DNA of 64,000 nt from Microbacterium hominis NBRC 15708 (GTDB taxonomy: Bacteria > Actinomycetota > Actinomycetes > Actinomycetales > Microbacteriaceae), in contig NZ_BCWI01000007.1 in the NCBI RefSeq assembly GCF_001592125.1, positions 1-64,000 of the forward strand, read 5' to 3'. Below the pieces are notes generated by a model, which had not been told where the DNA came from, did not search any database, and saw only the letters and a program-made list of their open reading frames with translations. Each line of letters opens with the position of its first letter. Position 1 is the first letter of the stretch. Positions 4,275 to 20,336 of this stretch are shown here, in pieces. Position numbers and translations under genes: made by a program.

Positions 4275-6686
4275 GTGCCTCTACGTCGCGACATCCAAGG
4301 TCTGCGCGCGCTCGCCGTGCTGGCCGTCATCGGCGCGCACGCCGCCGGCTGGCCGCGGGGCGGGTTCGCCGGTGTCGACGTGTTCTTCGTGATCTCCGGC
4401 TTCCTCATCACCGGGATGCTGCTGCGCGAGCAGCGGGCGACGGGCCGCATCCGCTTGGCGCGCTTCTACGGCCGGCGCGCCCGGCGGCTGCTGCCGGCCG
4501 CGCTCGTCACGGTCGGGGCGGTCATCGGTGCCGCGTTCGCCCTCTTCGGTCGTGCGCGGGCCGAACAGGTGCTGTGGGACGGTGTCTCGGCGCTGCTGCT
4601 GGTGTCGAACTGGCGGTTCACGCAGCAGGGCACCGACTACTTCCATGCGGGCGATGCCGTGTCGCCGCTGCAGAACTTCTGGTCGCTGTCGGTCGAGGAG
4701 CAGTTCTACCTCGTATGGCCCGGCCTTCTCATCGTGTCGCTGCTGTTCGTGCCCGCCGTCGCGCGCCGCGGGCGGGCGGTCGCCACGGTGGTGGCGGCGT
4801 GGGCGGTCGTCGTGATCGCGGCATCCTTCGGCTGGGCGCTGCTGCAGGGGGCGTCGGCGCCGACGGCGGCGTACTTCTCGACAGCGACCCGGGCGTGGGA
4901 GTTCGCTCTGGGCGCCCTGCTCGCCGCCGGGGTGCCGGTGCTGCGTCGGATTCCCGCGGCCGCCGCGGCCCTGCTGGCCTGGATCGGCGTCGCCGGTGTC
5001 GTCGCATCGCTCCTGCTCATCGACCCCGCGACTGTGGGCTTTCCCGGACCGTGGGCTGCCGCACCGACGGCCGCGACCGCGCTGGCGCTCGCCGGCGGCG
5101 TCGCCGCATCGCCGCGGGCGCTGTTCCCGTGGACGAACCCGCTGGCGGTCGTCGTCGGCAACGCCTCGTACTCGCTCTATCTGTGGCATTTCCCCGTGGT
5201 CGTGTTCGCCGCCGCCCTGCTTCCGGCGTCGCCCTGGTCGCTGCCGCTCACCCTCGCGATCGTCGCCGTGGTGGGCTTCGCGTCGTACGCGATCGTGGAG
5301 CAGCCGCTGCGCTACGCGCCGTTCCTGGGCGGCCGGGTTCCCGTGGCGGATGCGGGCGCGGACGCTGACGCGGCGCCGGACGTGGGACTGGATGCCGCGC
5401 CGGCGACGGCCGGTCGAGTGGCGCCGGCTGCCCCCGCTCCGCGCACCCCCGAGATCGCGACGCGCCGGCCCGCGGGGTGGCAGCCGGGCACCCGCTACTA
5501 CCCGGGCGGCGCGCGCATGGTGGCCGAGGCTGCCGCGCCGGACGCGGAGGCGGTGCCGCCGGCATCCGTCGTCGAGGCGATCGTCGAGGAGCGGCTTCCG
5601 GAGCCGGACCCCGTCGCTCCGACACCGCCGGTCCTCGAGGCCGCCGGGCCGGTGGCGAGCGTTGCTCCGATGGTGGCCTGGCGGGAGCGGTTCCGCACGC
5701 AGGTGCCGCTCGCGACCGCGGGGCTGGTCGCCGCGGCGCTGCTGCTCGTGCTCGCCGTGCAGGTGCAGCAGCCGCGTCCGGTTCCGCCGAGTGCCGACGC
5801 GGCCCAGGCGGCGCCCGCGATCGACGACCCGACGGCTGCGCTGCAGGCAGACCTGGCCGCCGCGGTGTCGGCGACGACCTGGCCGGAGCTGCATCCGTCG
5901 CTCGATGAGGTGATGGCCCAGTCGTCGGGGGCCAACCCGGCGCACGACTGCTTCGCGCCGACGCCGCTGCCGGATGCCGCGGCGTGCACGTGGGGGAGCG
6001 GCGCCGCGCCGCGCCACCTCTACCTCGTGGGCGACTCGACGGCGATGGCCTACGCGCCGGCGCTGAAGGCGCTCGCCGAGGAGAGCGGGGGTGCGATCCG
6101 CGTCACCACCGTGGGGCTCTACGGATGCCGGTTCACGGACGTCTTGGTGCAGAACGACGACCCCGCGGTGATGCAGGCCTGCACGCAGCGGAAGAACGAC
6201 GTCGCGGCGATGATCGCGGCCGACCAGCCCGAGACGGTGCTCGTCTCGAACGCGTACACGCTGGGCCGCACCGCCGACGGGCGCGACCTCAGCGCGGCGG
6301 AGCTCACCGCCGCCGAGGCCGCGGAGATGGCACGCTACGGGATGCCGGGGCGCATCGTCTATCTCGAGGCTCCGCCGGAGGGCGCCCCGCTCGGCAATTG
6401 CTACACGCGCCTCGGCTCGCCCTACGCCTGTGCGACGAGCATCACGCCGACCTGGCGCGACATGCAGGTGGCGACGACCGCCGCGGTGGCCTCGTCCGGT
6501 GATCGCGTCGTGGATGCCCTGGCCTTCACCTGCTGGCAGGGCGTGTGCCCGGCGTTCGCGGGGGCGCTGCCCATCCGCTATGACCAGACGCATCTGACCG
6601 TCGCCTACTCCGCACACCTCGCCCCGTACCTGCGGTGGGCGCTGGATGGGGGCGGCGGGGCCGGTGCCGCGGCGCCGCCCGGGTAG
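4275..6686 (+). CDS. Acyltransferase 3 (OafA-like) fused to C-terminal SGNH domain
   Basis: 803 aa from GTG 4275. Residues 1-350 form an acyltransferase-3 membrane domain with about ten helices, opening RRDIQGLRALAVLAVIGAHA and GGFAGVDVFFVISGFLITG, and containing FWSLSVEEQFYLVWPG. A proline/alanine-rich linker (about 350-475) leads to one more transmembrane helix and then an extracytoplasmic SGNH domain with GDST (Ser near 588) and DQTHLT (Asp and His near 770). OafA-type fusions move acyl groups to cell-surface polysaccharides or peptidoglycan. Target unknown. It ends just before tRNA-Arg. Confidence 0.88.
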   Translation: MPLRRDIQGLRALAVLAVIGAHAAGWPRGGFAGVDVFFVISGFLITGMLLREQRATGRIRLARFYGRRARRLLPAALVTVGAVIGAAFALFGRARAEQVLWDGVSALLLVSNWRFTQQGTDYFHAGDAVSPLQNFWSLSVEEQFYLVWPGLLIVSLLFVPAVARRGRAVATVVAAWAVVVIAASFGWALLQGASAPTAAYFSTATRAWEFALGALLAAGVPVLRRIPAAAAALLAWIGVAGVVASLLLIDPATVGFPGPWAAAPTAATALALAGGVAASPRALFPWTNPLAVVVGNASYSLYLWHFPVVVFAAALLPASPWSLPLTLAIVAVVGFASYAIVEQPLRYAPFLGGRVPVADAGADADAAPDVGLDAAPATAGRVAPAAPAPRTPEIATRRPAGWQPGTRYYPGGARMVAEAAAPDAEAVPPASVVEAIVEERLPEPDPVAPTPPVLEAAGPVASVAPMVAWRERFRTQVPLATAGLVAAALLLVLAVQVQQPRPVPPSADAAQAAPAIDDPTAALQADLAAAVSATTWPELHPSLDEVMAQSSGANPAHDCFAPTPLPDAAACTWGSGAAPRHLYLVGDSTAMAYAPALKALAEESGGAIRVTTVGLYGCRFTDVLVQNDDPAVMQACTQRKNDVAAMIAADQPETVLVSNAYTLGRTADGRDLSAAELTAAEAAEMARYGMPGRIVYLEAPPEGAPLGNCYTRLGSPYACATSITPTWRDMQVATTAAVASSGDRVVDALAFTCWQGVCPAFAGALPIRYDQTHLTVAYSAHLAPYLRWALDGGGGAGAAAPPG

Positions 6687-6699
6687 AATCGACGCGCCA

Positions 6700-6771
6700 G
6701 CCTCTGTAGCTCAGTGGAAGAGCCACTCCGTCCTAAGGAGCGGGTCGGGGGTTCGAATCCCTCCAGGGGCA
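6700..6771 (+). tRNA. tRNA-Arg (anticodon CCT)
   Basis: The acceptor stem GCCTCTG pairs with CAGGGGC, the D arm is GCTC...GAGC, and the anticodon arm CTCC-GTCCTAA-GGAG gives anticodon CCT with T33 and A37. The T arm is GGGGG-TTCGAAT-CCCTC. The discriminator is A and CCA is not encoded. It marks the left border of the island: a decayed integrase follows within 200 bp, and tRNA 3' ends are common attB sites. Confidence 0.95.
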
Positions 6772-6830
6772 CCGCGTCTTTTTGCTCCTGACCAGGCATT
6801 TCTTCCGTGGTCGGACCTCTCAGGATCGCC

Positions 6831-6972: not shown

Positions 6973-7850
6973 CTACGGTCGGGTCGGCAATTCGTAGCGC
7001 GTCTGCGGACCCGCCGGCAGCGCGACGAGCGGCATCTGGGCGTTGAGTTGTGCCGTGACGGCATCCAGATCGTCGTTGAAGAGGTCGGCATAGGTGTCGA
7101 GGGTCATCGCCGCGGACTCGTGCCCGAGCATCCGCTGCACGGCCTTCACGCTCGCGCCGGGGCTGATTACGAGCGACGCCAACGCTTGGTTGAGGTCGTG
7201 AGGGGTTGTCGATGGATCGAGGGATCGTTCGCTTGCGCGCTTCACCGCGTTCGCGAACCAACCCTGGCTGCCGAGTTGCGCAAGTGATGCACGCCATAGA
7301 CGAAGAGCAACCGTTGTGGGCTCCTGCCAGAGCACGCCTGCTCGATCATCGGAGGGAGGCGATCGGGGTAGGGAACCGAGCGCTTCTCTTGCGTCTTCGG
7401 TGTGCTGACGTGGCTCGTGTCGCCGATCCTCACCGCATTCTGCTCGATGACGAAGCGCTTGCGTAGCCGGTTCGCGCTGCGCACAAGCACTCTCGTCGCT
7501 TCGCACCAGTACACACCGGTGTAGGCGAACTTCAGCACCCTCGTCGGGTGCGTTGAGCATGCCGTCGGCGTTGCGACCTGGTCGGGGGAGAGGAAGACGC
7601 GGCACTAGCCCGGCCCCGTCCGGCGGAGATTCCGGAAGGTTCGCGCTGGATTGGTTGCAAGGCGCGATCATCCATCGCGACGTCGAGGAAGTCGGCGAGC
7701 AACCTCAGCGCGTGAGAACGACTGTGCGCGGCTACATCGTCGAGAGCTCCGACACCCAATCCTGAACCTCGGGTGCCGGATCGGCCACGTATCCCTGCCC
7801 GCCCAGGGGGCGCGACGTTGCTCTTCCACGCCCGCTCGAGCGTCATCTAA
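6973..7850 (-). pseudogene. Decayed tyrosine recombinase (phage-type integrase)
   Basis: Integrase-like pieces occur in order on the minus strand but in several frames. Near 7790-7740: VADPAPEVQDWVSELS. Near 7700: LADFLDVAMDDR. At 7538-7242: KFAYTGVYWCEA then TPKTQEKRSVPYP. At about 7280-6973: TPHDLNQALASL, then AVQRMLGHESAAMTLDTYADLF. In working relatives the box reads AYTGLRWGEA and HDLRHTAASL, so both the first catalytic Arg and the HxxR Arg are lost. At least three frameshifts separate the pieces. It sits 200 bp from tRNA-Arg and reads toward it, the usual layout of a tRNA-integrated element. The element can no longer move by its own enzyme. Confidence 0.8.
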
Positions 7851-8156: not shown

Positions 8157-9428
8157 GTGGACAGAAATGAGTCGCGGGTGCATACAGTAGTGGAGATCTG
8201 CGCTGGCGCTGGTGGGCAGTCACTCGGCCTCCACAAGGCAGGATTCACTCATTCGCTTGCGGTGGAGATCGACGCAACCGCGGCGGAGACGCTCCGCGCG
8301 AATCTGGATGGTCCCGTTGCGGTCGGCGATGCTGCCAACCCCGAGGTGTGGGATCCGCAGGACTACAGCGGCGTGACCTTGCTTGCGGGCGGTGTGCCTT
8401 GCCCTCCCTTCTCGATCGCCGGCAAGCAGCTCGGTTCGTCCGATGAGCGTGATCTCTTCGCATGGGCAATCGAGCAGGTCGGAGTGATGCGGCCGCGAGC
8501 AGTCATGCTGGAGAACGTGCGCGGGCTCTCGGCTCCCAGGTTCTCGGCATACCGGCAACGAATTATCGATCGCCTCGACGAGTACGGGTACGTCGGTGAG
8601 TGGAAGCTTCTTCACGCGTCAGACTACGGAGTCCCGCAGCTGCGACCTCGCTTTGTTCTTGTCGCAATGCGGCCTGAGGACCACGCGTACTTCCGTTTTC
8701 CAGACACCGACGGTAGCGAGACCACGACAGTTGGCGAATCGCTCTATGAGCTCATGGCATCCAACGGTTGGAAAGGCGCTGCCGCATGGAGATCGCTGGC
8801 TAATGGGATTGGTCCGACGCTAGTGGGTGGCAGCAAGAAGCATGGAGGCGCAGACCTTGGCCCGTCTCGGGCAAAGCTCGGGTGGGCCAAGTTGCACGTA
8901 GATGGGCGTGGGATCGCAGACGCAGCACCCGCGCGCGATGCACCGTCGCCCCACGAGTGGCATCCGCGCCTGACAATCGCGATGGCGGCGCGAGTCCAAG
9001 GTTGGACGGCGGAGGACAACTGGGTGTTCAGCGGTCGAAAGACATCTCAATACCGCCAGATCGGCAATGCTTTTCCGCCACCGGTCGCGGAATCAGTCGG
9101 GCGGAGCATCATCGCAGCCGTCAACCACGAGGGACCAGCTCGCGACGACATTGGTCGTGAGGTGGATCTACACGACTCCGTCTACCGCGCACTTGCTAGC
9201 GCGTCCGGCGCGCTCACGTTTGAGGACCTCGTGAAGGCGCACAACGAAGGAAGCAGCGCAGCCGTCGAACGGAAGCTGGCGGCACTCGCCCACGACTTTG
9301 AACTAGAGGTCCTTGAGGATCGCTCAGGCAAGACTCGATACCGACTTGGCGCGTTCAAGGGGTTCACTGGCCAAGCAGATCACCTGCGCCACGAGTTCGT
9401 AGCCCAACACCGCAACCGAGTCAGTTGA
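8157..9428 (+). CDS. DNA (cytosine-5) methyltransferase, NaeI-type system
   Basis: 423 aa from GTG 8157; a longer frame from 8085 adds residues before motif I that the family lacks. Motif I is EICAGAGGQSLG (13-24), the catalytic PC is in GGVPCPPFS (Cys82), motif VI is ENVRG (119-123), motif VIII contains YGVPQLRPR, and motif X is YRQIGNAFPPPVAESVG. About 100 extra residues follow motif X and look like a small helical or winged-helix extension. The stop overlaps the endonuclease start by 4 bp (TTGA), so the two are translationally coupled. By association with a NaeI-like endonuclease it should protect GCCGGC; the site is inferred, not read from the sequence. Confidence 0.9.
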   Translation: MDRNESRVHTVVEICAGAGGQSLGLHKAGFTHSLAVEIDATAAETLRANLDGPVAVGDAANPEVWDPQDYSGVTLLAGGVPCPPFSIAGKQLGSSDERDLFAWAIEQVGVMRPRAVMLENVRGLSAPRFSAYRQRIIDRLDEYGYVGEWKLLHASDYGVPQLRPRFVLVAMRPEDHAYFRFPDTDGSETTTVGESLYELMASNGWKGAAAWRSLANGIGPTLVGGSKKHGGADLGPSRAKLGWAKLHVDGRGIADAAPARDAPSPHEWHPRLTIAMAARVQGWTAEDNWVFSGRKTSQYRQIGNAFPPPVAESVGRSIIAAVNHEGPARDDIGREVDLHDSVYRALASASGALTFEDLVKAHNEGSSAAVERKLAALAHDFELEVLEDRSGKTRYRLGAFKGFTGQADHLRHEFVAQHRNRVS

Positions 9429-10390
9429 ACTTGTCTGATCAGCTACCAGGAGACTGGTCCTACGATCCGGTCGCTTACGAATCCGATATGGCTCTTGTGC
9501 AGGTGTACCGAGCATTCGAGCGAGCCGATTCCGACGGAGCACGGATCGCGCAGATGATGCGGAAGACACTTGATCAGCTGTACGACGGGCAGCGTACCGG
9601 TCGGTACTCGTGGAATCAGCTTCACAAGACCGAACGCACCCATTTCGGGACTCTGTTCGAGATCAATCTTCGTCGTGAGTTCGACGACGTTATCGATGAA
9701 GGTGTCGGGCTCGACTATCGAATCGCTGGTCACGACGTAGACTGTAAGTTCTCGCAAACTATGAATGCATGGATGATTCCGCCCGAGGCCGTCGGCGAGC
9801 TGCTCTTCGTTGGTTATGTCAACGACTCCGCGAGTGAGTTTGCGGTCGGTGTGGTTCGCGCATCGCCCGAACATTTGAGATCGGGAGCGAACCGCGACGC
9901 CAAGGTCGGCCTGAACCAAGCTGGACGTGATGCTGTGCGCTGGCTTCACCGCCACGGTGACCTTCCGCCCAACGTGCTACTTCAAGCCGATCCGGATGAT
10001 CTCGCTGCAATCTTCAAGAGGGGTCTGTCAGGGCAAGCTCGCGTGAACGAGCTGTTCCGCCGTATCGTGCGTCGCCGAATCGGCCGGAGTGCTGTTGCGA
10101 CAGTGGCGCAGCAAGACGACTTCATGAAGCGCGTACGCGAGAACGGCGGTGCGCGCAGCCTCCTGCGCCCCGAGGGATACGTGATCCTTGGGGGCGACTA
10201 CGCGCTGCACCGGCGGGCCGCCGAAGAATTTGGAGTGCCTGTGCCTCAACCGGGTGAGATGGTCAGCCTCCGGATCACCAAGGCGGACGACGGCGACGTG
10301 AACACCGTCGAAATTGCAGAATCGTCGTGGCGCGCTGCGGACGATGGAGAGCAGGTCAGCGGCCCCGCACCGCTGATTCCCCACCGATAG
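9425..10390 (+). CDS. NaeI-like type IIE restriction endonuclease
   Basis: 321 aa from TTG 9425. Residues 48-57 are TLDQLYDGQR, identical to the NaeI segment that resembles a DNA-ligase active site but has Leu in place of Lys; the Leu is Leu52 here. Glu79, Asp97, Asp106 and Lys108 (the last two in HDVDCK) fit the NaeI catalytic set. The C-terminal half carries GQARVNELFRRI and VATVAQQDDFMKRVRENGGARS, the effector-DNA-binding region. NaeI cuts GCCGGC blunt after binding a second site. Coupling to the methyltransferase supports a working R-M pair. Its length is near NaeI's 317 aa. Confidence 0.92.
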   Translation: MNLSDQLPGDWSYDPVAYESDMALVQVYRAFERADSDGARIAQMMRKTLDQLYDGQRTGRYSWNQLHKTERTHFGTLFEINLRREFDDVIDEGVGLDYRIAGHDVDCKFSQTMNAWMIPPEAVGELLFVGYVNDSASEFAVGVVRASPEHLRSGANRDAKVGLNQAGRDAVRWLHRHGDLPPNVLLQADPDDLAAIFKRGLSGQARVNELFRRIVRRRIGRSAVATVAQQDDFMKRVRENGGARSLLRPEGYVILGGDYALHRRAAEEFGVPVPQPGEMVSLRITKADDGDVNTVEIAESSWRAADDGEQVSGPAPLIPHR

Positions 10391-10972
10391 CGGAATGTGT
10401 GCCGATGGCGTCCGAGACACGGTCAAATGCGACTTCGGCATCCCTCGCGCTCCCGAACCTTGACATCCTCGTGCCGTGTCCCGAGCACCGCTGGCATCCT
10501 GCAGGTCTCGCTCGCGGTTACGTGCAAGCCTCACTTCCCAGTAGCCCGTGTTGAGGCGTGGCTTCGCGCCGCACCACGCCCCCGAGAAACCAAAGGCAAT
10601 CCACTACGAACACTGCGCGCCGGGCTTCGTATAGAAGATATCCGGCCGCACCGACTCTGGACCGAACGCGAGACGATGGTCACACCGACTTCTGTACCCG
10701 CGGCGTGAAGCCTCGAGCGCGATGCCAACCAAAGCTTGCTGCCTCTGTCGGCGATTCGACGGCGTGCCTCTCTGGCGAGCTGATGGCTCGCTTTCGGCGG
10801 CCAGTGGTGCGACTTCGCTACCGCTCCTCGCGTGCCGGTGTCGGGCTGAGCTATCGGCGACTCGATTGTCACTGCGGGCACGCGGTCTCCTCAAGGGCGA
10901 TCGACCGCCTTCCACTTTTAACGTTCTGTTGGCGGTGCTCATGAGTATTGTGTGTTGAATGGGGACCTGCCG
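10391..10972. other. 582-bp gap between R-M pair and helicase operon
   Basis: No convincing gene is seen. Short frames on both strands are Arg/Ser/Pro-rich and match nothing I recognise; in particular there is no Vsr motif, although some C5 systems carry one. The last 60 bp hold a possible -10 (TATTGT, 10946-10951) and the GGGGA ribosome site of the next gene. It could be a regulatory spacer or a gene remnant. Confidence 0.4.
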
Positions 10973-13009
10973 ATGACGAACGAGCGCTACCTTTGGTGGC
11001 AAGAGGCGCTTGCCGACTACTTCTTGGTGCCGCAGGACGGGGCCCTCGTACTGTTCATCGATGACGACGAATTACGAAAGATTGCCCCAGATCTAGAGGA
11101 CCCGGCCGGTGACCTGGCGCAGGCCGTCCGCGACGCGAGCTCGCGTGCGCCGCTTTCCTACTTCGGTCGGGTAGCGGGCAATCGCCGAATATGGCAGCGC
11201 GGTGACCGCGCATTGCCGCCTCCTGTTCTTCCGGTGCTGGCGATGACTGTGCTCGCGGCCACCCGTATGCGCTCGGACGGGGAGGTGCGTTCCACGAACT
11301 ACTACCGGCGCCTTGCCGAATCGATCGAGCCCGCTGCGGGTGCGTCGCGCGTAGCTCAGCTGAAGGCAGAGGTCGAAGGGAGCGCTTTCCTCGACGTCGT
11401 CGAAATGTGGTGCGCCCTCGACGAGTGGATTCACGAGCAGGCCGGTCGTGTCGGCGTATCAACGATCCGAACGCACGAACGTCTCACGCGAATCGGATAC
11501 CCGCAGTCGCAGGCCCTTCTCACTAGGAACGACCGCGCCGAGCTGACGCGGTTCTTTGCCGCGCTCAGCATCAGCGAGTCCGGACTCCCCGATGAGAACT
11601 CGATGCTGAGGGCTCTGGAAGTCTGGACCTCCGCCAGCTCGAACAGGCTGGGCGACACGTTTATGGACGCGCTTCGTGGCGCAGACACGAAAGGACTGAT
11701 TGCCGCGGTGGTTTTGGCGTGCGCGGCTGCATGGGACGGTCAGGTGATCACAAAGGATGGCCGCCGGCGCATCGCTGTGCGGCTGGGCATCGACCTCGAG
11801 GAATGGACTACAGGGTGGCTGTTCCCGCTTCAGGACGCGGGCTCGGGGCCCATCACGCTCGGCGGCCTGACAGCGGCGGACAAACCTGTCACGCTCGTCC
11901 CCAATCCGCCCTCACGCTACTACGCCGCCGGCGATGCCCCCTTCGTGACCATCGACAACATTACGCACGGTCTCCGCCTACGGGGCAGTGAGTACGCTGC
12001 TGAGTTTCCGAAGGCAGAAGTGGTCATCTTCTCCCGTGACGCCGACACCGGGGCGTGGTCGTCAACGACAGGCATCACCCCTTACGAGACCCATGTGATT
12101 GCCGCAAAGGGCGCAGAATCATCGGCAGTCTCCCGCGTGCTTGGTGCGGCTGCCGAGTCGGGATGGGCGACGCGTAGGCAGGGGGCGAGACCGCTTCTCC
12201 CGGGTTTCGTCCTGTTCGAGGGCGTCAGGTTCACCGAGGATGCTGCGCTTCAGAAGGCATTGAGCGACGAGCCGGGGCTGCGGGCGCTTGGAGTCGCCCC
12301 GACTCTCATTCCCCGGGCGCGTTTCGTCCGCGGACTGCCGCTAGACCGAGATCTTGCGCCGAATCACTATCTACTCGGTGGCGAGCCTGACCTTCTCCTC
12401 CCCACTGAGAATGAGAGCCGGATGGTTGCGCTGTCGCTCGGAGGCAAGGAGGACCGGGTCCCCGCGAACGGTTTTCCGTTCGAGGTGAGGCGCTGGCCGT
12501 GCCCCGAGGGTGTGACGGAGATCCTCGCGGAGGGGCAGCAGCTCAGCTTCACGCTTCTCGCGGAGTCTGTCGTTGAAGCGACCCCGAAGGGAACCGCCAC
12601 GTTGGGTTGGGACGAGAACTCAGAACTCGGAGCGCTGAAAGTGACTCCTAAGCTCATCGGCGCCGTCGTCAGCGGCACGTTCGCTGACACATCCGTGATG
12701 TGCCGGTGCGGGCGTGACGAGTCCTGGCTGCTTCTGGAGGGCGGCAGAACTCAGCCTCTCGCGGAACCAAGGCCACCGACCTTCACCGATGCTGCTGGGT
12801 TCGCGTTCACTCCCCGATACTTCGAGGCATCCGCACCCCCGTCGGCGCGGTGGCTCGCGCAGCGCAGCGGGACGACCTGGCACCTCAGTAGCCTCGTTTC
12901 ACCGCGGGAAGTGCGAGCCACTTTTGACGTGCTCGGAACGTGGTCACGCAACGCCGACGCCACGGGGCCCGCGCTCTGGGAGATTCAGATGGGACTCGCC
13001 AATGGATGA
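10973..13009 (+). CDS. Unknown 678-aa protein, first gene of helicase operon
   Basis: Starts at ATG 10973 (MTNERYLWWQEALADYFL) with GGGGA 7 nt upstream; a TTG at 10952 would add seven residues. I do not recognise a catalytic motif. The first 250 residues look alpha-helical and acidic (LFIDDDELRKIAPDLEDP; TIRTHERLTRIGYPQSQA). The C-terminal part is richer in beta-like stretches (RRWPCPEGVTEILAEG; WLLLEGGRTQPL). There is no signal peptide, membrane segment or clear zinc ribbon. The stop overlaps the next start by 8 bp (ATGGATGA). Position just upstream of a DruE-like helicase suggests a DruF-type adaptor or sensor, by context only. Confidence 0.7.
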   Translation: MTNERYLWWQEALADYFLVPQDGALVLFIDDDELRKIAPDLEDPAGDLAQAVRDASSRAPLSYFGRVAGNRRIWQRGDRALPPPVLPVLAMTVLAATRMRSDGEVRSTNYYRRLAESIEPAAGASRVAQLKAEVEGSAFLDVVEMWCALDEWIHEQAGRVGVSTIRTHERLTRIGYPQSQALLTRNDRAELTRFFAALSISESGLPDENSMLRALEVWTSASSNRLGDTFMDALRGADTKGLIAAVVLACAAAWDGQVITKDGRRRIAVRLGIDLEEWTTGWLFPLQDAGSGPITLGGLTAADKPVTLVPNPPSRYYAAGDAPFVTIDNITHGLRLRGSEYAAEFPKAEVVIFSRDADTGAWSSTTGITPYETHVIAAKGAESSAVSRVLGAAAESGWATRRQGARPLLPGFVLFEGVRFTEDAALQKALSDEPGLRALGVAPTLIPRARFVRGLPLDRDLAPNHYLLGGEPDLLLPTENESRMVALSLGGKEDRVPANGFPFEVRRWPCPEGVTEILAEGQQLSFTLLAESVVEATPKGTATLGWDENSELGALKVTPKLIGAVVSGTFADTSVMCRCGRDESWLLLEGGRTQPLAEPRPPTFTDAAGFAFTPRYFEASAPPSARWLAQRSGTTWHLSSLVSPREVRATFDVLGTWSRNADATGPALWEIQMGLANG

Positions 13010-13937
13010 GACCGTGGGCGACCTGCTGTTCCGATGGATGAGCGAGGTCGGCTCAGGAACAATCACCGATGTGCGCACCCGAATCGACTGGATTGCCCGG
13101 ACGACCAACATCGAGCCGCGCCGGCACACGAGCGGACGATGGCTGCGTGACCTCTCCTCGCTCGGTCACTGCGAAGTGGACTGGGACGGAGGCCGATGGT
13201 CCGTGGCTCCACCCGCGCTCGTGCGCCTCCCCTCCGCAGGCGGGCTTGCCGTCATCGCAGGCGCTCGCCGCCCCCGGATGATGCGTATTCTTGAGGACTT
13301 CTGCGGCTGGCTTCCGGCGGCTCGGCGGGAGCCGCCAGAAGGGGAGGTCCCGCTGCCCATCACCTTCTACATGCAGCACACACGCGAATCTGACCTCGTC
13401 GATGCCGCTGACGCCACGGGCCTCACTCTCGCCGGGCAGGCCGCGGAGCGTATCGCGCGCACGCTGCCCCCCACTCGCCCGCATGTCTTGACAGGCCCGC
13501 CCGCCTTCGCCGCCCAGCTCAAGCGCCTCGACTCGATGCACCCGCGTTTCTGGCAGAGCGTCAGCGCGGCCCAGGCGAATCACCCGGACGGCCTCTACTC
13601 CGAGCAGGTCAACGGCCGAGCTCGGCACATCACTCGGCGCAGCGGCGAGTGGTTCGCGTGCGACCTGTCCACCGGCACCTTCGCCGAGCTCGCCCGCCGA
13701 CACGAGTCTGCTCTGCGTTGGCGCGCTGACACCGGGCGCGAAGCCGCTGGTACCGGCACGCTGTTTGTGGACTGGGGTGCTCCGCTACCCGCCCTGCATA
13801 GCCGCGCGCTTGTCCTGTGCACCGGTCTCCCGCCGAGATTCGGTGCGACCGCAACGACCGCCATGTACGAGAACGTGCCCCGCGATGTCGCGGCGCGTGT
13901 AAGTACGTCCCTTGGCCAGACGCTGGCCACCGACTGA
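13002..13937 (+). CDS. Unknown 311-aa protein, second gene of helicase operon
   Basis: Starts at ATG 13002 (MDETVGDLLFRWMSEVG), inside the previous stop; the frame is open further upstream but only as a shadow of the first gene. Residues 1-75 look like a winged-helix fold: GSGTITDVRTRIDWI, SGRWLRDLSSLGHCEVD and the wing-like WDGGRWSVAPPALVRLP. Residues 150-230 include LTGPPAFAAQLKRLDSMHPRFW. No enzymatic motif is recognised. A 16-bp gap to the helicase implies one transcript. A DNA-binding or phage-sensing partner (DruG-like by position) is plausible but unproven. Confidence 0.7.
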   Translation: MDETVGDLLFRWMSEVGSGTITDVRTRIDWIARTTNIEPRRHTSGRWLRDLSSLGHCEVDWDGGRWSVAPPALVRLPSAGGLAVIAGARRPRMMRILEDFCGWLPAARREPPEGEVPLPITFYMQHTRESDLVDAADATGLTLAGQAAERIARTLPPTRPHVLTGPPAFAAQLKRLDSMHPRFWQSVSAAQANHPDGLYSEQVNGRARHITRRSGEWFACDLSTGTFAELARRHESALRWRADTGREAAGTGTLFVDWGAPLPALHSRALVLCTGLPPRFGATATTAMYENVPRDVAARVSTSLGQTLATD

Positions 13938-13953
13938 GAGGCGCGCCCCGTAC

Positions 13954-16900
13954 ATGAATGCCCCTACCCCGCGTCATCTCGACGCCGTCAAGACCTTCGA
14001 GCACCTGCGCGAGGCGTACTTCAAGTACTACAACACGCCGTTCGGACTGGCCGACCCCGCCCTGCAGGCGGAACGACAGCTGCTTCTGGACCGTGACGGC
14101 GGCGTCTTCCGTGAGCCCCTCCTCGAGTTGCGTCCCGAGTACGAGGGAACCGGGCACACTCTTGCGGAGTCCGTAAGCGCTGCGGGAGCCGCACCCGAGC
14201 TTGCCGAGTTCGCCGCACGCGGACTGCTCAAGGGCGTGCCCGCTCTCCACGGCCATCAGGAGGCCGCCCTGACCGCTGGAGTGACGCCTGGGAAGAGCAT
14301 GGTTATCACCGCTGGCACTGGCTCCGGAAAGACAGAGTCTTTCATGCTGCCTCTGCTCTCCTCCCTCCTCGAGGAGTCTCGGGATTGGAAGGGGTCATCG
14401 AGCCTCGGAGGGAAATGGTGGGATAGCAACAGCCCCACTTTCGTCTCCCAGCGCCAATCCGATGCGGGAAGGGCTGCCGTCCGCGCCATTGTGCTCTACC
14501 CGATGAACGCACTGGTAGATGATCAACTCATCCGCCTCCGCCGAGCCCTCGACAGTGAGGAGGTCCGCTCCTGGCTGAACGAGCGCCGGAGCGGGCATCG
14601 GTTCTACTTCGGCAGGTATACCGGCGCGACCCCCGTCACTGGATTGCGCTCGAACGGGTTGAGAGTTAAGGAGCTCGCCAGGTACCTTCGCGCGACTGAA
14701 GCGCGTGGCAGCCGTGCTCGCGAACTCGCCGCACAGCTCGGTGACGAGGGTCTGCAGTACTTCGTGCCACGGCTGGACGGCGCTGAGATGCGCTCGCGCT
14801 GGGATATGGCGGACGCCCCGCCGGACATTCTTATCACCAACTACTCGATGCTCAATGTGATGCTGCTCCGTGACCGCGATGCGCACTTCTTCGAGTCCAC
14901 TCGTAGGTGGCTGGAGAATCCCGCGAACCGCTTTACCCTCGTCGTCGACGAGCTGCACACCTACCGCGGCACCGCTGGGAGCGAGGTCGCGTATCTAGTC
15001 AGGCACCTCAAGCGCCGTCTCGGACTTGACAGGAACCCCGAGCAGTTCCGCGTACTGGCGGCGTCCGCCTCGCTTGACGCGCAGCGTGACCAGGATTACC
15101 TCCACCAGTTCTTCGATGCCCAGCCCGGGTCCTTCGCTTTTATCGAAGGCACGAACAAAGTGCCCCCGCTAGAGGACCCGGTCTCTGCGGAGGATCCCGC
15201 CGGGCTCGCGGCGATGTCGGCGGGCGACGCCGCCGTCGTGGCCCGCGAGGCCGGCATCGTCGAATCGCTCCGGACTGCACTGCACGCTCGCAGTGGGGCG
15301 GCGAAGCGGCTCGACGACCTCGCGACCGCCATATTCCCCGATGCGAAAGAGGAGATTTCGCGTGCGGCTGTCGCACGTGTCCTCGAAGGCCTTGCCGCGG
15401 AACCGCACGAGAGCGACCCGAAGCTTCGTGCGCACCTCTTCTTCCGGAACGTTGCCGGAGTATGGGCCTGCTCCGACCGTGAGTGCAGCGTAGTGACGGA
15501 CCCCTCTCCGGACCGCACTATCGGCAAACTCCACGCCGAGCCGGCAACGCGATGCGAATGCGGGGCGCGCGTACTCGAGCTCCTGTACTGCCAGAACTGC
15601 GGAGACGTGTTTCTTGGTGGATTCGCCCCCGAAGGCGAGCCCCAGCAATCGGGCGTGAAAACCATGCTCCTCGCTGACGTGCCCGAGCTGGCGAAGCTTC
15701 CCGACCAGGTCAGCTTGCAGCGCACCGCTGACAACTACATCGTCTACTGGCCGCGGGACGTGAGAAGCCTGGATGCGCTCGACTCGCGCTCGTGGACGCG
15801 AGACGGCCAGAAAGTTGAGTACTCCTTTCGGCCCAGCACCCTAAACCCGGGCTCTGGGGAACTGCGGAACATCGCGACCGGGCACACTGGCTGGAGCTTC
15901 CACGCGAAGGTCGCGCGAGACAATGTCGGCGGGCTCAAGCGTGACGTGGCGACGGTGAGTCCGTTCCCGACGCAGTGCCCCGCCTGCGGCGACGACTGGG
16001 AGCAGCAGTACGCAGGGCCCGAACGCCTCAAGGCGACGGATCCGCGCACTCAGCGGTCGCCCATCCGAACGATGCGCACTGGTTTTGAGAAGGTCAACCA
16101 GATCCTTACGACGGAGCTCGCAAATGACCTGAGCGAGCGGGAACGCAAGATCATCGTCTTCACCGACAGCCGGCAGGACGCTGCGAAGCTCTCCGCCGGA
16201 CTCGGCCTCCGCCACTATCAGGACCTTCTTCGCCAGCTGATGTACCTCCGTCTCAAGCGAGCGGGTGACCCGGCGTCGGACGTTGAGCGAGCCCGGGAAT
16301 ACCTCGCAGAGGGGAACAAGACCCCTGACAGGTGGGAGGCGATCACACGTCTACGCGAGCGCGACTCCGCCAGTTTCAACGCGCTGCGGGATATCTGGGA
16401 GGAGGCGCCCGGTACGGACGTGACGGCGGCGCCAGCCCTCATCGCTGACCTGTCGAAGGGCCTCACCCTCAGTGAGCTCTCCTCGCTGGTCTCGCTCGAT
16501 TTGCTCGACCTGGGCATGAACCCCGGCGGGCCTCATGCAAGCCTGCGTGAGCGTGGTGGTGACACCTGGTCGTCACTGTTCAACTGGAGCGTCACACCCG
16601 TCGTCCCTCGCAGCGGGCTCTCCCCGACCGGACAGTTGCTCATCGAGGACATCAGCGCCTCCCTCGAGAGCGAAATCCTCGAGGGCCTGTACGCCGGTGG
16701 TGGGCGTGACTTCGAGACCACCGGGCTCGGCTGGCTCACGCTCGCAGATGACACAGCTCCCGCCGACGCGCCGGGCACGGTGAGCGACGGCGAGGCGAGG
16801 GCAGCCCTGCGAATTCTCGCCGACCAGCGCCGCTTCAGCAGGATTCGCTCGGCGCGGGGCGAGCCCACACCCCGCCTCCGCAAGTTTTGGACAAAGGTCG

Positions 16901-19383
16901 CGGACGAGACCGCGGGAGACCCTGATGCGCTGCGCCAGGACGCGCTGAATCGCGCAGGCGAGGCGGTCATCGATTACCTGATTAACCCATCAAAGGTGTC
17001 CATCCGACTAAGCGACGGACGGGCCTGGACCTGTGAGAAGTGCCGTCGTCAGCACCTGACAACGGGAAACGGATTCTGCACAAAGTGCGCGCGGAGGCTC
17101 CCCACCCAATCCACTCCGGTCGTCAACGAAACCGACTACTACGCCTGGAAGGCCATGAGCGACGACGGTAGATTCCGTCTGAACACCGCGGAGCTCACCG
17201 GCCAGACCGACCGTGTCGATGCGCAGAACCGTCAGGCAAGATTCCAGGGTGTATTCCTGGCGGGCGACGAGAACGAGAAGACTGACGCTGTCGACCTGCT
17301 CTCCGTCACGACCACGATGGAGGCTGGCGTCGACATTGGCTCGCTGTCTGCCGTCGTTCTCGGCAACATGCCGCCCACGAGGTTCAACTATCAGCAGCGG
17401 GTCGGACGCGCAGGGCGGCGAGGTTCCCCGGTCGCCATCGCACTCACCATCTGCCGCGGGCGCAGCCATGATGAGTACTACTTCGAGCGACCTGACCGAA
17501 TCACTAACGAGCCAACGCCCAAGCCCTACCTCACGCTGAATCGTCCCGAGCTGTTCGACCGCTCCCTGCGTAGCGAGATTCTCCGGCTCTCGTCCGCGGA
17601 CTATCTGTCTGCAGCAGGTGGGGATGACCTCTCGTCGAACGTGCACGGTGAGTTCGGCAAGACCGGCGACTGGGACACGATCATTCGGCCGCGACTTGAG
17701 CGGTGGATAAACGACAACCGCGATGCCGTCATCGCTCTCGCGACCGCTTTGAGCTCAAGCACCTCGTTCCACGCCTCGGCCGCGGAACGGGCAGATGCCG
17801 TGCTCGGCACGCTTGTGTCCGACATCGCGGGGGCGGTGGCCACGGCGAAGCACGACGACCTCAGCCAGCTGCTTGCCGAGGCCGGCCTCCTGCCGATGTT
17901 CGGGTTCCCGACGTCTGTGCGTTACCTCTACCTCCACCGTCCGTTGTCGTCGAACCCGTGGCCGCCGACGGATGTGATAGACCGCGACCTGAGCATGGCC
18001 GTCAGCGCGTTCGCTCCGCTCAGCGAAGTCGTCCGGGACGGAAGGGTCTACCCCGTCATTGGCGTAACCGAGTTCAAGCCTGTCGGCTCTGGGACTCCGC
18101 AGCCGGTGCCCGACGCGCTGGGGAACTCGTCGGCGCTGTTCATCTGCCGGACCTGCTCGTACCTCGGCGATGAGCGCGCCGGTGACGGCACGGATACCTG
18201 TCCTCGATGCGGAGCCGGTCCTGCCTACTTCAGCGAGGTTCCCCTGCGCGAGCCGCTCGGATTCCGGAGCGGGTTCGACACGGACTTCGACGGCAACTTC
18301 TCGTGGTCTCCGCGCGCGATGGCGGCACGGGCCATGGCGGACCCGACGAAGCTCGCCGAGTCGGCTGTGGGCCGCGCCCAGGTCCTCGCTGGACCCGCCG
18401 AGCGATACGTCGTCAACGACAACGGCGGGCATCTGTTCCCACTCCGCCGCGCCGCTACCGGCGGGCCGAACTGGGGTGGATACGTGTCGGTGCAGGCCAT
18501 CGAGCAGGGGCTGATACCCGGCACCTTCGCGACGGGAGATGTCGAGCACGTCGCGCTAGGAGCCGTGCAACACACGGACTTCCTCTTCATCGGTTCCGTC
18601 ACCCCGACGGACTGGGACCGCGGAATCCGGCTGAATCTCGTATCCGGCATCCATCAGCCGAGCGGCGCGCCGGACGTCACCGACGGGCGCCGAGCTGGCT
18701 GGTTCTCGCTTGCCTTCCTCCTGCGCACTGTCGCCGCAACGAAGCTCGACATCCTGCCGCTTGAGCTCAACGCGGGCATCTACTCGGGTGTAACCGTAAC
18801 GGGGGAGCCGACCGTTCAGGCGTTCCTCGCGGACACGCTCGAGAATGGTGCAGGCTTTAGCACGCATCTCGGGTCCGAGCAGTTCCTTCCTGAGTTCCTG
18901 GACGCAACTACGACGTACCTTACGGAGCTGGAGCGGGGCGATCACCCTCACGCCTGCAACTCGTCGTGCTACCGGTGCCTGCGTGACTACGGGAACATGG
19001 CCTACCACGCGCTTCTTGACTGGCGCCTCGCCCAGGATCTCTTCGGCTTGCTTCGCGACGGCACGCTGGACATCGACCGCGAAGCGGAGTCGAAAGCGCT
19101 GAGCCGGTGGGCTGCATCGTTCGGCGCAACAGTCCTCGACTTGCCTAAAGCCTCCGCCGCTATCATCGAGACACCTCAGTACGGCGTGTACGGGGTGGTG
19201 CTCCGCCATCCGTTCGAAGGCTCCGACGTGGACGTGATGTCCGAGCGACTCGCCGAGGCAGCAGCGGATATCGAAACCTCGACAGACTGCAACGGTGTGG
19301 TGTTCGTGGACTCATTCACGATCGACCGCGACCCTAGGCGCGTGCTCAAACTCATCGCCGACGCGGCGCAGGCCATGACGTGA
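13954..19383 (+). CDS. Large SF2 DEAD/DEAH-type helicase with DUF1998 C-terminus (DruE-like)
   Basis: 1809 aa from ATG 13954. Walker A is AGTGSGKT (120-127) after HGHQEAAL; motif II is DELH (332-335), followed by AASASL (motif III). The second RecA lobe has KIIVFTDSRQDAAKLSAGL (about 730-750), MEAGVDIGSL and QRVGRAGRRG (1148-1157). Cysteine pairs suggest zinc ribbons: CECGAR, CQNCGD, CPACGD, CEKC...CTKC and CRTC...CPRCGAG. The end has CNSSCYRCLRDYGN (Cys1668, 1672, 1675), the DUF1998 signature. Helicases of this size and order occur as DruE in Druantia, with shorter split versions in DISARM. It probably moves along or unwinds DNA to feed the downstream nuclease. Confidence 0.9.
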   Translation: MNAPTPRHLDAVKTFEHLREAYFKYYNTPFGLADPALQAERQLLLDRDGGVFREPLLELRPEYEGTGHTLAESVSAAGAAPELAEFAARGLLKGVPALHGHQEAALTAGVTPGKSMVITAGTGSGKTESFMLPLLSSLLEESRDWKGSSSLGGKWWDSNSPTFVSQRQSDAGRAAVRAIVLYPMNALVDDQLIRLRRALDSEEVRSWLNERRSGHRFYFGRYTGATPVTGLRSNGLRVKELARYLRATEARGSRARELAAQLGDEGLQYFVPRLDGAEMRSRWDMADAPPDILITNYSMLNVMLLRDRDAHFFESTRRWLENPANRFTLVVDELHTYRGTAGSEVAYLVRHLKRRLGLDRNPEQFRVLAASASLDAQRDQDYLHQFFDAQPGSFAFIEGTNKVPPLEDPVSAEDPAGLAAMSAGDAAVVAREAGIVESLRTALHARSGAAKRLDDLATAIFPDAKEEISRAAVARVLEGLAAEPHESDPKLRAHLFFRNVAGVWACSDRECSVVTDPSPDRTIGKLHAEPATRCECGARVLELLYCQNCGDVFLGGFAPEGEPQQSGVKTMLLADVPELAKLPDQVSLQRTADNYIVYWPRDVRSLDALDSRSWTRDGQKVEYSFRPSTLNPGSGELRNIATGHTGWSFHAKVARDNVGGLKRDVATVSPFPTQCPACGDDWEQQYAGPERLKATDPRTQRSPIRTMRTGFEKVNQILTTELANDLSERERKIIVFTDSRQDAAKLSAGLGLRHYQDLLRQLMYLRLKRAGDPASDVERAREYLAEGNKTPDRWEAITRLRERDSASFNALRDIWEEAPGTDVTAAPALIADLSKGLTLSELSSLVSLDLLDLGMNPGGPHASLRERGGDTWSSLFNWSVTPVVPRSGLSPTGQLLIEDISASLESEILEGLYAGGGRDFETTGLGWLTLADDTAPADAPGTVSDGEARAALRILADQRRFSRIRSARGEPTPRLRKFWTKVADETAGDPDALRQDALNRAGEAVIDYLINPSKVSIRLSDGRAWTCEKCRRQHLTTGNGFCTKCARRLPTQSTPVVNETDYYAWKAMSDDGRFRLNTAELTGQTDRVDAQNRQARFQGVFLAGDENEKTDAVDLLSVTTTMEAGVDIGSLSAVVLGNMPPTRFNYQQRVGRAGRRGSPVAIALTICRGRSHDEYYFERPDRITNEPTPKPYLTLNRPELFDRSLRSEILRLSSADYLSAAGGDDLSSNVHGEFGKTGDWDTIIRPRLERWINDNRDAVIALATALSSSTSFHASAAERADAVLGTLVSDIAGAVATAKHDDLSQLLAEAGLLPMFGFPTSVRYLYLHRPLSSNPWPPTDVIDRDLSMAVSAFAPLSEVVRDGRVYPVIGVTEFKPVGSGTPQPVPDALGNSSALFICRTCSYLGDERAGDGTDTCPRCGAGPAYFSEVPLREPLGFRSGFDTDFDGNFSWSPRAMAARAMADPTKLAESAVGRAQVLAGPAERYVVNDNGGHLFPLRRAATGGPNWGGYVSVQAIEQGLIPGTFATGDVEHVALGAVQHTDFLFIGSVTPTDWDRGIRLNLVSGIHQPSGAPDVTDGRRAGWFSLAFLLRTVAATKLDILPLELNAGIYSGVTVTGEPTVQAFLADTLENGAGFSTHLGSEQFLPEFLDATTTYLTELERGDHPHACNSSCYRCLRDYGNMAYHALLDWRLAQDLFGLLRDGTLDIDREAESKALSRWAASFGATVLDLPKASAAIIETPQYGVYGVVLRHPFEGSDVDVMSERLAEAAADIETSTDCNGVVFVDSFTIDRDPRRVLKLIADAAQAMT

Positions 19384-20336
19384 CCCAGCGAGGTGAGTGG
19401 TTGTCGGCGACGTCAGCCGGACGATTGCTGCGGTGCCCAGCGTCCGCGGCGTTTGTCACTACCCCGAATCCCATCCCACCTTCGCCACCTCAGAACGCTG
19501 GGACCCTCGCACACCTCGCGATGAGCGCTTGGTTCGAGAGCGGTGCCTGGCTGGACGACGAGCACGGACATGGCCTGCAGCAGGCGTGGGATCTCGAAGT
19601 AGGGCGATGGATGGTTGACGCGAAACGGCTGCCCAACTCGGTCATGACCCGCGCGAGATTGCGTTCGCGAGGCCCCGAGCTCGCAGCGGTCCTCAAGAGC
19701 GTCGGTATCACTGCGCGCTCCGAGGTATTCCTACGAGATGACGTCAGCATGCTCTACGGTCAACTAGACGTGGTCGCCGACGATTCACGCGGTGGTGCGG
19801 TAGTAGACCTAAAGACCGGCAACGATACTGACAGCGAACGCGTGCGGACTCAGTTGCTGATCTACGCAGCCCTGCTCAAGAATGAGACAGGGCATCTTCC
19901 GACTTTGGTTGCGTTCAGTCTCGTGCACGGCCCGGTGCCGATCGAGTTCTCACAGGCAGATGTGGACGATGTATTCGCGCGCGTCGAAACAGCACGCGGG
20001 CAACGTGGATTAGAGGTGCCGAACCCCGCGGGCTGCAAGTACTGTCGTCGTCGACACGTCTGTGAACCGCACTGGAGCGCTGCGACAACATGGGCTGAGC
20101 CTGATTGCGTCGAAGGTCGTATAAGCAAGGTCGAGACCGCTGCCGGAGGACTGACTGCTGTTCGGGTCAGTACCGCAGCTGGCGAGCAATGGGTGACAGG
20201 CCTGGTGCCTCCGGGCCAGCACAGTCTGGCCAGGGGGCGCACGATTCGAGTGACCGAGGCGGCCGGACGGGGAGCGGGCGCTGAGCGTGAGTGGCGAGCC
20301 AACCGATCGACTCGCGCTTCGGTGCTACCCGACTAA
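19380..20336 (+). CDS. PD-(D/E)XK nuclease, RecB/Cas4-like, with four-Cys Fe-S motif
   Basis: 318 aa from GTG 19380, overlapping the helicase stop by 4 bp (GTGA). The nuclease core is visible: GTLAH (His45), YGQLDVV (Asp130), VVDLKTG (Asp143, Lys145) and QLLIYAALL (Gln158, Tyr162), the RecB motif set. Cys19 (LLRCPAS) and Cys219, 222 and 228 (GCKYCRRRHVC) match the iron-sulfur staple of AddB/Cas4-type nucleases. About 90 residues follow the last Cys and may form a small beta domain. Translational coupling implies a helicase-nuclease pair. I know of no standard Druantia system with this gene. Confidence 0.88.
   Translation: MTQRGEWLSATSAGRLLRCPASAAFVTTPNPIPPSPPQNAGTLAHLAMSAWFESGAWLDDEHGHGLQQAWDLEVGRWMVDAKRLPNSVMTRARLRSRGPELAAVLKSVGITARSEVFLRDDVSMLYGQLDVVADDSRGGAVVDLKTGNDTDSERVRTQLLIYAALLKNETGHLPTLVAFSLVHGPVPIEFSQADVDDVFARVETARGQRGLEVPNPAGCKYCRRRHVCEPHWSAATTWAEPDCVEGRISKVETAAGGLTAVRVSTAAGEQWVTGLVPPGQHSLARGRTIRVTEAAGRGAGAEREWRANRSTRASVLPD

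What the first reader, a model, noticed from the sequence alone, without database searches (positions are those of the whole stretch)
8157..20336. Possible composite anti-phage system: NaeI-type R-M joined to a DruE-like helicase operon
Gene order is C5 methyltransferase, NaeI-like endonuclease, two unknown proteins (678 and 311 aa), a 1809-aa DUF1998 helicase and a PD-(D/E)XK nuclease. Druantia type II is described as methyltransferase (DruM), DruF, DruG and DruE. The arrangement here fits that order with two extra nucleases. The methyltransferase may serve both the endonuclease and the helicase complex for self/non-self marking. All junctions inside each block are 4-8 bp overlaps or a 16-bp gap.
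Basis: partly seen in the sequence, partly recalled or inferred. Interest (0 to 1): 0.82.

Follow-up and report, generated by a model that had tools for sequence, protein, structure and literature searches.

The report
Druantia IV wedded to NaeI restriction-modification
This actinobacterium carries a Druantia type IV anti-phage gene set right beside a NaeI-type restriction-modification pair, similar pairings recur in other actinobacteria in different gene orders, and the two likely work together, with the methyl mark predicted to protect the host's own DNA from both.

Summary
The six genes are there. The core is Druantia type IV (druF-druL-druE, plus druK), not type II: no DruG profile was listed for the six proteins, and the 311-aa protein is DruL. 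Upstream sits a NaeI-type R-M pair whose methyltransferase scores best on PADLOC's DruM. 582 bp holding a decayed vsr gene separate the blocks; other loci flip or move the R-M pair, so it is a linked module rather than one operon.

The pairing recurs. In 18 other actinobacterial genomes with DruF loci, 10 have NaeI on the same contig within about 8.3 kb and 16 have an m5C methyltransferase within about 6.4 kb. Background NaeI is 3 of 395 genomes; 11 DruF-less DruE relatives have neither in the stretches fetched. R-M and Druantia trees disagree, so the pairing was remade. Exceptions exist: two remote DruF loci have an HsdM-like instead of an m5C methyltransferase nearby, and outside Actinomycetota only 3 of 8 plasmid loci opened have an m5C one.

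Likely mechanism, inferred with DISARM as precedent: methylation marks self for both NaeI and the DruE complex. The published statement that type IV lacks DruM does not describe most of these loci.

The parts
6700..6773 (+). tRNA-Arg (CCT), likely integration site of the island (no second att copy found)
   Evidence: ARAGORN; 3'-end search with up to 3 mismatches found only this copy
6973..7671 (-). tyrosine integrase remnant
   Evidence: PF00589 E 1.6e-7 over the C-terminal part of the profile only
8157..9428 (+). M: C5-cytosine methyltransferase, DruM2-profile / NaeI-type, with a C-terminal extension (GQADHLRH motif)
   Evidence: PF00145 192 bits; PDLC00032 DruM2 708 bits, MTase_II 551 bits; PCPPF, ENV, QLRPR, GNAFP motifs; extension
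9425..10390 (+). R: NaeI-family endonuclease
   Evidence: PF09126 360 bits; residues 21-320 aligned to solved NaeI 1ev7, E 3e-79; EINL, DYRI, DCKF
10478..10783 (-). decayed vsr (very-short-patch-repair endonuclease) remnant with an internal stop
   Evidence: tblastn 31% over 108 aa to the Vsr of L040, E 5e-9; one stop in that frame
10973..13009 (+). DruF
   Evidence: PDLC00020 909 bits, PDLC00052 831 bits; 107 proteins at E<=0.001
13002..13937 (+). DruL
   Evidence: PDLC00057 420 bits; predicted model pLDDT 91
13954..19383 (+). DruE, YprA-type SF2 helicase
   Evidence: PDLC00051 2520 bits; PF00270 and PF00271; Walker A, DELH, motif VI and Cys motif
19380..20336 (+). DruK, Cas4-like PD-(D/E)XK nuclease
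   Evidence: PDLC00059 395 bits; PF12705; GQLD, DLKT and cysteines at 19, 219, 222, 228, 243

Best explanation
The window holds a Druantia type IV core (druF-druL-druE-druK) beside a NaeI-type m5C restriction-modification pair, and the two likely act as one two-layer DNA restriction module in which the methyltransferase is predicted to mark host DNA as self for both NaeI and the DruE helicase complex. Shown: gene content, kept catalytic motifs, and a recurrent association whose parts have been reshuffled. Inferred: M methylates the NaeI site (GCCGGC, recalled) in host DNA; NaeI cuts unmethylated incoming DNA; DruE, with DruF and DruL as loading or sensing partners, engages foreign DNA that escapes (single-stranded or replicating) and is held back on m5C-marked DNA, as the related DISARM helicase complex is; DruK or, in several Streptomyces-type loci, a PIN-domain protein is the likely cutting subunit. 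M would thus be a shared self-mark, the equivalent of DruM in type II.
For: (1) Survey: of 18 genomes with DruF loci, 10 have NaeI on the same contig within about 8.3 kb and 16 have an m5C MTase within about 6.4 kb, 11 of them within 2.5 kb. Of 6 more remote DruF loci, 4 have a linked m5C MTase. (2) Background NaeI: 4 of 396 Actinomycetota genomes including this one against 13 of 19 records examined, all 13 among the 18 genomes; Fisher p 3e-18 for 13/18 against 3/395, relatedness not corrected. (3) Control: 11 DruE-like loci without DruF in the same family have no NaeI and no m5C MTase in the 20 kb fetched; 16/18 against 0/11, p 2e-6. (4) Trees disagree: DruE pairs window with L038 (85%) while M and NaeI pair window with L039 (72%, 81%); L038's M is 80% to L043's but their NaeI only 52%. 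(5) Several MTase lineages and REase types fill the slot: NaeI, NgoMIV-like, NotI-like, MvaI/BcnI (as annotated). (6) M stays when NaeI is gone: L046, L050, L053 keep an M but their genomes have no NaeI match. (7) Flanks are not rich in other defence genes: of 122 other flank genes scanned, one PADLOC family (methyl-directed REase) was met in three and the rest listed in one or two (25 of 50 families listed). (8) Precedent: DrmAB ATPase is stimulated by unmethylated DNA and reduced by m5C (PMC9142583, passages).
Against: No expression, methylation or phage data. M surviving without R is also what neutral decay predicts, because losing M first would be lethal. 2 of the 18 (L045, L047) have the R-M pair on another contig; one viral contig (L056) has no linked MTase that I could find. 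The two remote loci without an m5C MTase (L068, L080) have an HsdM-like N6A-type MTase in the same stretch instead, so m5C is not exclusive. Outside Actinomycetota only 3 of 8 DruF-bearing plasmid loci opened have an m5C MTase, so the mark cannot be essential to every DruFLE machine. M proteins linked to Druantia do not form a group of their own in the tree. R-M and Druantia are not co-directional in the flipped loci.
Confidence: 0.5

Rival explanations
1. Two independent systems kept together because they complement each other: R-M stops unmodified phages early, Druantia acts late on those that escape; no shared mark or contact.
For: Changing order and orientation of the pair; 5 of 8 non-actinobacterial DruF plasmid loci opened show no m5C MTase; L068 and L080 have an HsdM-like MTase instead, as if any R-M would do; type III Druantia acts late (PMC13192584, abstract).
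Against: In the 18-locus survey an HsdM query found no N6A MTase of that kind (0 of 18) while 16 had an m5C one; other N6A types were not searched one by one, and only 25 of 50 PADLOC families of the flank scan were listed.
Confidence: 0.27
2. Cut and load: NaeI breaks supply the ends onto which DruE, DruF and DruL load, and DruK degrades from there.
For: NaeI is linked in 10 of 18, a NotI-like enzyme in 1 and an unassigned nuclease-like protein in 1; DruK (7, one partial) or a PIN_8 protein (4) follows DruE in 11 of the 17 loci that can be read there.
Against: Type III DruE prefers 3' single strands and leaves blunt duplex largely untouched (PMC13192584 section 9); NaeI leaves blunt ends (recalled), so resection would be needed. 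L046, L050 and L053 have no NaeI.
Confidence: 0.13
3. The R-M pair is an addiction module that stabilises the mobile island carrying Druantia; the link is selfish, not defensive cooperation.
For: Island beside a tRNA with an integrase remnant; R-M pairs are recalled to stabilise mobile DNA.
Against: M without R would give no addiction, yet is kept in L046, L050, L053; 0 of 11 other YprA-family loci in the same family have such a pair.
Confidence: 0.07
4. Chance or general clustering in defence islands.
For: Defence genes are known to cluster.
Against: 13 of 18 against 3 of 395 genomes; linked in 10 of 18; 0 of 11 controls, one of whose genomes (G145) does hold a NaeI pair but about 2.2 Mb away; few other defence families in the flanks.
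Confidence: 0.03

Closest known systems
Druantia type IV (PADLOC 2021)
   Same: DruE, DruF and DruL all present and strong; DruK profile of PADLOC-DB 2.0 matched
   Different: Published type IV is said to lack DruM and DruG (PMC8565338, passages); here a DruM-profile methyltransferase and a NaeI endonuclease sit beside the core
Druantia type II (DruMFGE)
   Same: DruM-profile methyltransferase upstream of DruF and DruE; the long type II DruF profiles match both DruF and DruL of this locus
   Different: No DruG listed; DruF and DruL are separate genes; a restriction endonuclease is present
NaeI type IIE restriction-modification
   Same: Endonuclease aligned over residues 21-320 with solved NaeI (1ev7); m5C methyltransferase overlaps it by 4 bp
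   Different: Linked to a helicase-nuclease operon; methyltransferase has a C-terminal extension not seen in 7 stand-alone NaeI loci
DISARM with DrmMII
   Same: m5C methyltransferase plus DUF1998-type SF2 helicase; working precedent for methylation gating; DrmMII profiles match M at up to 100 bits
   Different: No DrmB or DrmC listed; DrmA profiles match DruE only at about 31 bits
CglI (endonuclease plus SF2 helicase-like ATPase)
   Same: Restriction endonuclease combined with an SF2 motor

Membership tests
Druantia type IV | DruE, DruF and DruL encoded together | tested here: met
   2520, 831 and 420 bits to DruE4, DruF4, DruL4; 8-bp overlap and 16-bp gap
Druantia type IV | lacks DruM | tested here: not met
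   M scores 708 bits on DruM2 PDLC00032 and ends 1.5 kb upstream of druF; so the locus is a variant around a type IV core rather than a plain type IV
Druantia type IV | lacks DruG | tested here: met
   no DruG profile listed for any of the six proteins (full lists for four of them, best 25 for M and DruE); other window genes were not scanned for it
Druantia type II | DruG present | tested here: not met
   with the same limits
Druantia type II | DruM, DruF, DruE present | tested here: met
   708, 909 and 2060 bits to type II profiles
NaeI-type R-M | NaeI endonuclease with active-site residues | tested here: met
   PF09126; alignment to 1ev7 keeps the E, D, D and K positions (their catalytic roles are recalled)
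NaeI-type R-M | adjacent m5C methyltransferase | tested here: met
   PF00145, 4-bp overlap; of 7 stand-alone NaeI loci, 5 carry an M of the same family (225-389 bits) and 2 a more distant m5C M (60-65 bits)
NaeI-type R-M | recognition of GCCGGC | not testable with these tools
   needs methylome or digestion; GCCGGC is not depleted in the window (113 seen, 124 expected)
DISARM | DrmA plus DrmB (and DrmC) | tested here: not met
   DrmA about 31 bits against DruE4 2520; no DrmB or DrmC listed for the six proteins
ARMADA | PglX-like methylase and BrxHII-like helicase beside the YprA helicase | tested here: inconclusive
   neither is among the six genes, but no ARMADA profile was at hand and the other window genes were not scanned with PADLOC

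The most novel reading that the evidence does not exclude
DruF-class Druantia (types II and IV) is a methylation-gated helicase restriction machine whose self-mark is a methyltransferase, mostly m5C, borrowed again and again from ordinary R-M pairs (NaeI, NotI-like, MvaI/BcnI and others): DruM is a captured R-M methyltransferase, this locus shows the capture with the endonuclease still in place, and the C-terminal GQxDHxRH extension of M is its docking piece for the Druantia proteins.
Probability: 0.3. Interest if true: 0.77.

Novelty: new variant of a known kind. Interest (0 to 1): 0.56.

Why it matters
In the papers seen here only type III Druantia has a worked-out mechanism; types II and IV have none. 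A strong tendency of the actinobacterial systems to travel with an m5C methyltransferase, often as a whole R-M pair, gives a direct handle on how they might avoid attacking their own DNA, shows that the published statement that type IV lacks DruM does not describe most of these loci, and offers natural pairs for testing whether one methyl mark can serve two unrelated defence machines.
Full report
What is there. Six genes in two tight blocks lie on a stretch of lower GC (61-67% in 2-kb windows against about 68-76% outside) next to tRNA-Arg(CCT), with a decayed integrase between the tRNA and the first gene (PF00589). Block 1 is a C5 methyltransferase and a NaeI endonuclease overlapping by 4 bp. 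Block 2 is druF, druL, druE, druK with overlaps of 8 and 4 bp and one 16-bp gap. PADLOC profiles name every gene: DruM2, REase_II, DruF, DruL4, DruE4, DruK. NaeI residues 21-320 align to the solved enzyme 1ev7 and keep its active-site positions (roles recalled). DruE keeps the helicase motifs, DruK the PD-(D/E)XK motif and cysteines like those of Cas4-type nucleases (the comparison is recalled). The 582-bp gap between the blocks carries the remains of a vsr gene on the other strand, with an internal stop. Vsr repairs the mismatch left when 5-methylcytosine deaminates (recalled), so the remnant fits an m5C R-M pair.

What it is. DruE plus DruF plus DruL defines Druantia type IV in the PADLOC paper, which reports 168 instances and says they lack DruM and DruG (PMC8565338, passages). 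No DruG profile was listed here, but the methyltransferase beside the core scores higher on a DruM profile (708 bits) than on the best R-M profile (551). The long type II DruF profiles of 1011 and 1030 positions match the window's DruF with their first part and its DruL with their last part, and two Nocardiopsis loci have the fused gene (L054, L055). So types II and IV look like close versions of one machine.

Is the pairing more than chance. One scan of GTDB genomes with a DruF alignment built around the window's protein gave 18 loci in 18 genomes, all actinobacterial by title. NaeI lies on the same contig within about 8.3 kb in 10 of 18: L038, L039, L040, L041, L043, L048, L049, L051, L052, L054 (L049 by the extended stretch L057). 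L040 is damaged or badly sequenced: its NaeI, DruL and DruE read in pieces; L041 is cut by a contig end inside druE. An m5C methyltransferase lies within about 6.4 kb in 16 of 18: those ten and L042, L044, L046, L050, L053, L055; in 11 it is within 2.5 kb. L055's genome has NaeI and Vsr at the end of another contig while M lies at the start of the Druantia contig, which suggests an assembly break (inferred). L045 and L047 have NaeI-type pairs on other contigs, that of L047 a weak NaeI (101 bits). In all, 13 of the 18 genomes hold a NaeI match against 4 of 396 drawn from the phylum, the window's own included. Within the window's family it is 6 of 199, and the two genomes there with a recognised type IV core are among the six. 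Fisher p for 13/18 against 3/395 is 3e-18, without correction for relatedness.

Controls. Eleven DruE-like helicase loci without DruF in the same family have no NaeI and no m5C methyltransferase in 20-kb stretches that reach 3.0-6.9 kb on the shorter and 7.8-11.5 kb on the longer side. One of these genomes, G145, does hold a NaeI pair, about 2.2 Mb away. Seven NaeI pairs met elsewhere have no Druantia gene in the 10-20 kb fetched, some near contig ends, so NaeI pairs live on their own too. Scanning 122 other flank genes against PADLOC found one family in three members, a methyl-directed (AspBHI-like) restriction enzyme, and the other listed ones in one or two; 25 of 50 families were listed. 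The three are L046, L050 and L053, the loci that keep M but whose genomes have no NaeI match; L046's copy is short and only two flank proteins show the catalytic Mrr domain.

Exceptions and remote loci. Six more remote DruF loci were opened: four have an m5C methyltransferase of other lineages nearby (L067, L081, L103, L104), two do not (L068, L080). These two carry an HsdM-like methyltransferase in the same stretch, about 6 and 4 kb from druF; the same query found none in the 18 survey loci. So a linked methyltransferase is present in all six, but not always m5C. One viral contig (L056) shows none.

Outside the phylum. Of 157 plasmid records with a DruE match (25 listed) I opened ten. Eight carry DruF; three have an m5C methyltransferase beside it: Nostoc C052 (just upstream of druF), Shinella (divergent from druF) and Alisedimentitalea, where the partner is a full pair with an endonuclease annotated MvaI/BcnI. 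Five, in Deinococcus and cyanobacteria, show none; in two of them (L109, L113) the stretch is cut just upstream of druF by the start of the circular record. A Rhizobium locus without a recognised DruF has m5C methyltransferase and Vsr upstream and McrC downstream; a Meiothermus one looks like type I. The tendency is strong in Actinomycetota and partial elsewhere.

Repeated assembly. Arrangements differ: co-directional upstream (window, L039), inverted upstream (L038, L043), convergent M and R upstream (L040, L041), downstream in Streptomyces-type loci (L048, L049, L051, L052), and others. The DruE tree joins window and L038 (85% identity), but M and NaeI join window and L039 (72% and 81%); L038 and L043 share M (80%) but not NaeI (52%), whose L043 copy is closest to L040 and L041 (77% and 75%). 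R-M pairs, and even their halves, appear to have been swapped while the partnership persisted. L048 carries both a NaeI and an NgoMIV-like enzyme with one M; both enzymes are recalled to cut GCCGGC. L042's neighbour is an unassigned 374-aa protein that I read by eye as nuclease-like; Pfam gave nothing and it is only weakly similar to the NgoMIV-like protein (19 bits).

How it likely works. Shown by others: the DISARM helicase complex is stimulated by unmethylated DNA and less active on m5C DNA (PMC9142583, passages); type III DruE prefers 3' single strands and leaves blunt duplex largely untouched (PMC13192584, section 9). Inferred here: M marks host GCCGGC sites; NaeI cuts unmarked DNA; the DruE complex engages foreign DNA with exposed single strands and is held off marked DNA; DruK, or the PIN_8 protein found after druE in L047, L049, L051, L052 and L056, cuts. 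The retention of M without R, the m5C chemistry in 16 of 18 survey loci and the several unrelated MTase lineages favour a shared mark. Neutral loss of R first is the main alternative for the M-only loci, and the HsdM-like exceptions fit either a mark of another chemistry or mere complementation. An extended M with a GQxDHxRH motif occurs in 7 of the 24 M proteins compared: six Druantia-linked and one unlinked but in a Druantia IV genome, and in none of 7 stand-alone NaeI loci; this is a small sample.

What is known. No paper in the library holds both NaeI and Druantia; other searches listed no paper on this association, but most subscription papers are not held. Papers seen: PMC8565338, PMC11090510, PMC7251935, PMC13316683, PMC5737866, PMC9142583 (passages); PMC12458937 (abstract and passages); PMC13192584 (abstract, outline, section 9).

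Verdict. A new variant of a known kind: a Druantia type IV core linked to a NaeI R-M pair, part of a recurrent actinobacterial pattern. The host's family is read as Microbacteriaceae because a same-family genome (G065) has a contig of the same length, 10522, as a record so titled.

Noticed in passing
window 10478-10783 (-): Decayed vsr gene between NaeI and druF; Vsr-like genes accompany the R-M pair in many related loci.
   Followed up: yes
L044:2502-4829 (-): A 775-aa m5C methyltransferase whose N-terminal part matches Vsr (44% over 125 aa), apparently a Vsr-methyltransferase fusion, near a NotI-like endonuclease.
   Followed up: partly
L048:18853-21630: NaeI and an NgoMIV-like endonuclease side by side with one Vsr and one M: possibly two enzymes for one site.
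   Followed up: no
L047, L049, L051, L052, L056 after druE: No DruK hit; a protein of about 480 aa with a PIN_8 domain (domain scanned in L047, the others by similarity) lies after druE, in L051 after an intervening NaeI.
   Followed up: partly
L046, L050, L053: Loci with M but no NaeI in the genome carry an AspBHI-like methyl-directed restriction enzyme next to Druantia; how it would spare M-marked DNA is unclear.
   Followed up: no
L068:18512-19999 (+) and L080:2030-4258 (-): The two DruF loci without an m5C methyltransferase carry an HsdM-like methyltransferase nearby.
   Followed up: partly
L040:8055-9113 (-) and L041:5186-5916 (-): An HNH endonuclease gene lies between M and NaeI (in pieces in L041).
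   Followed up: no
window M, residues ~350-447: C-terminal extension with a GQADHLRH motif, seen only in M proteins of Druantia IV genomes in this sample of 24.
   Followed up: partly
L054:9917-13414 and L055:1504-4974: DruF and DruL fused into one protein of about 1150 aa in Nocardiopsis.
   Followed up: yes
L051:9089-12115: A second Vsr-like stretch reads straight into the druF frame.
   Followed up: no
L105:6096-23190: On a Deinococcus plasmid the DruF-DruL-DruE genes sit near a type III-A CRISPR locus with no m5C methyltransferase found.
   Followed up: no
window 4275-6686: Acyltransferase-3 domain fused to an SGNH domain just upstream of the tRNA.
   Followed up: no
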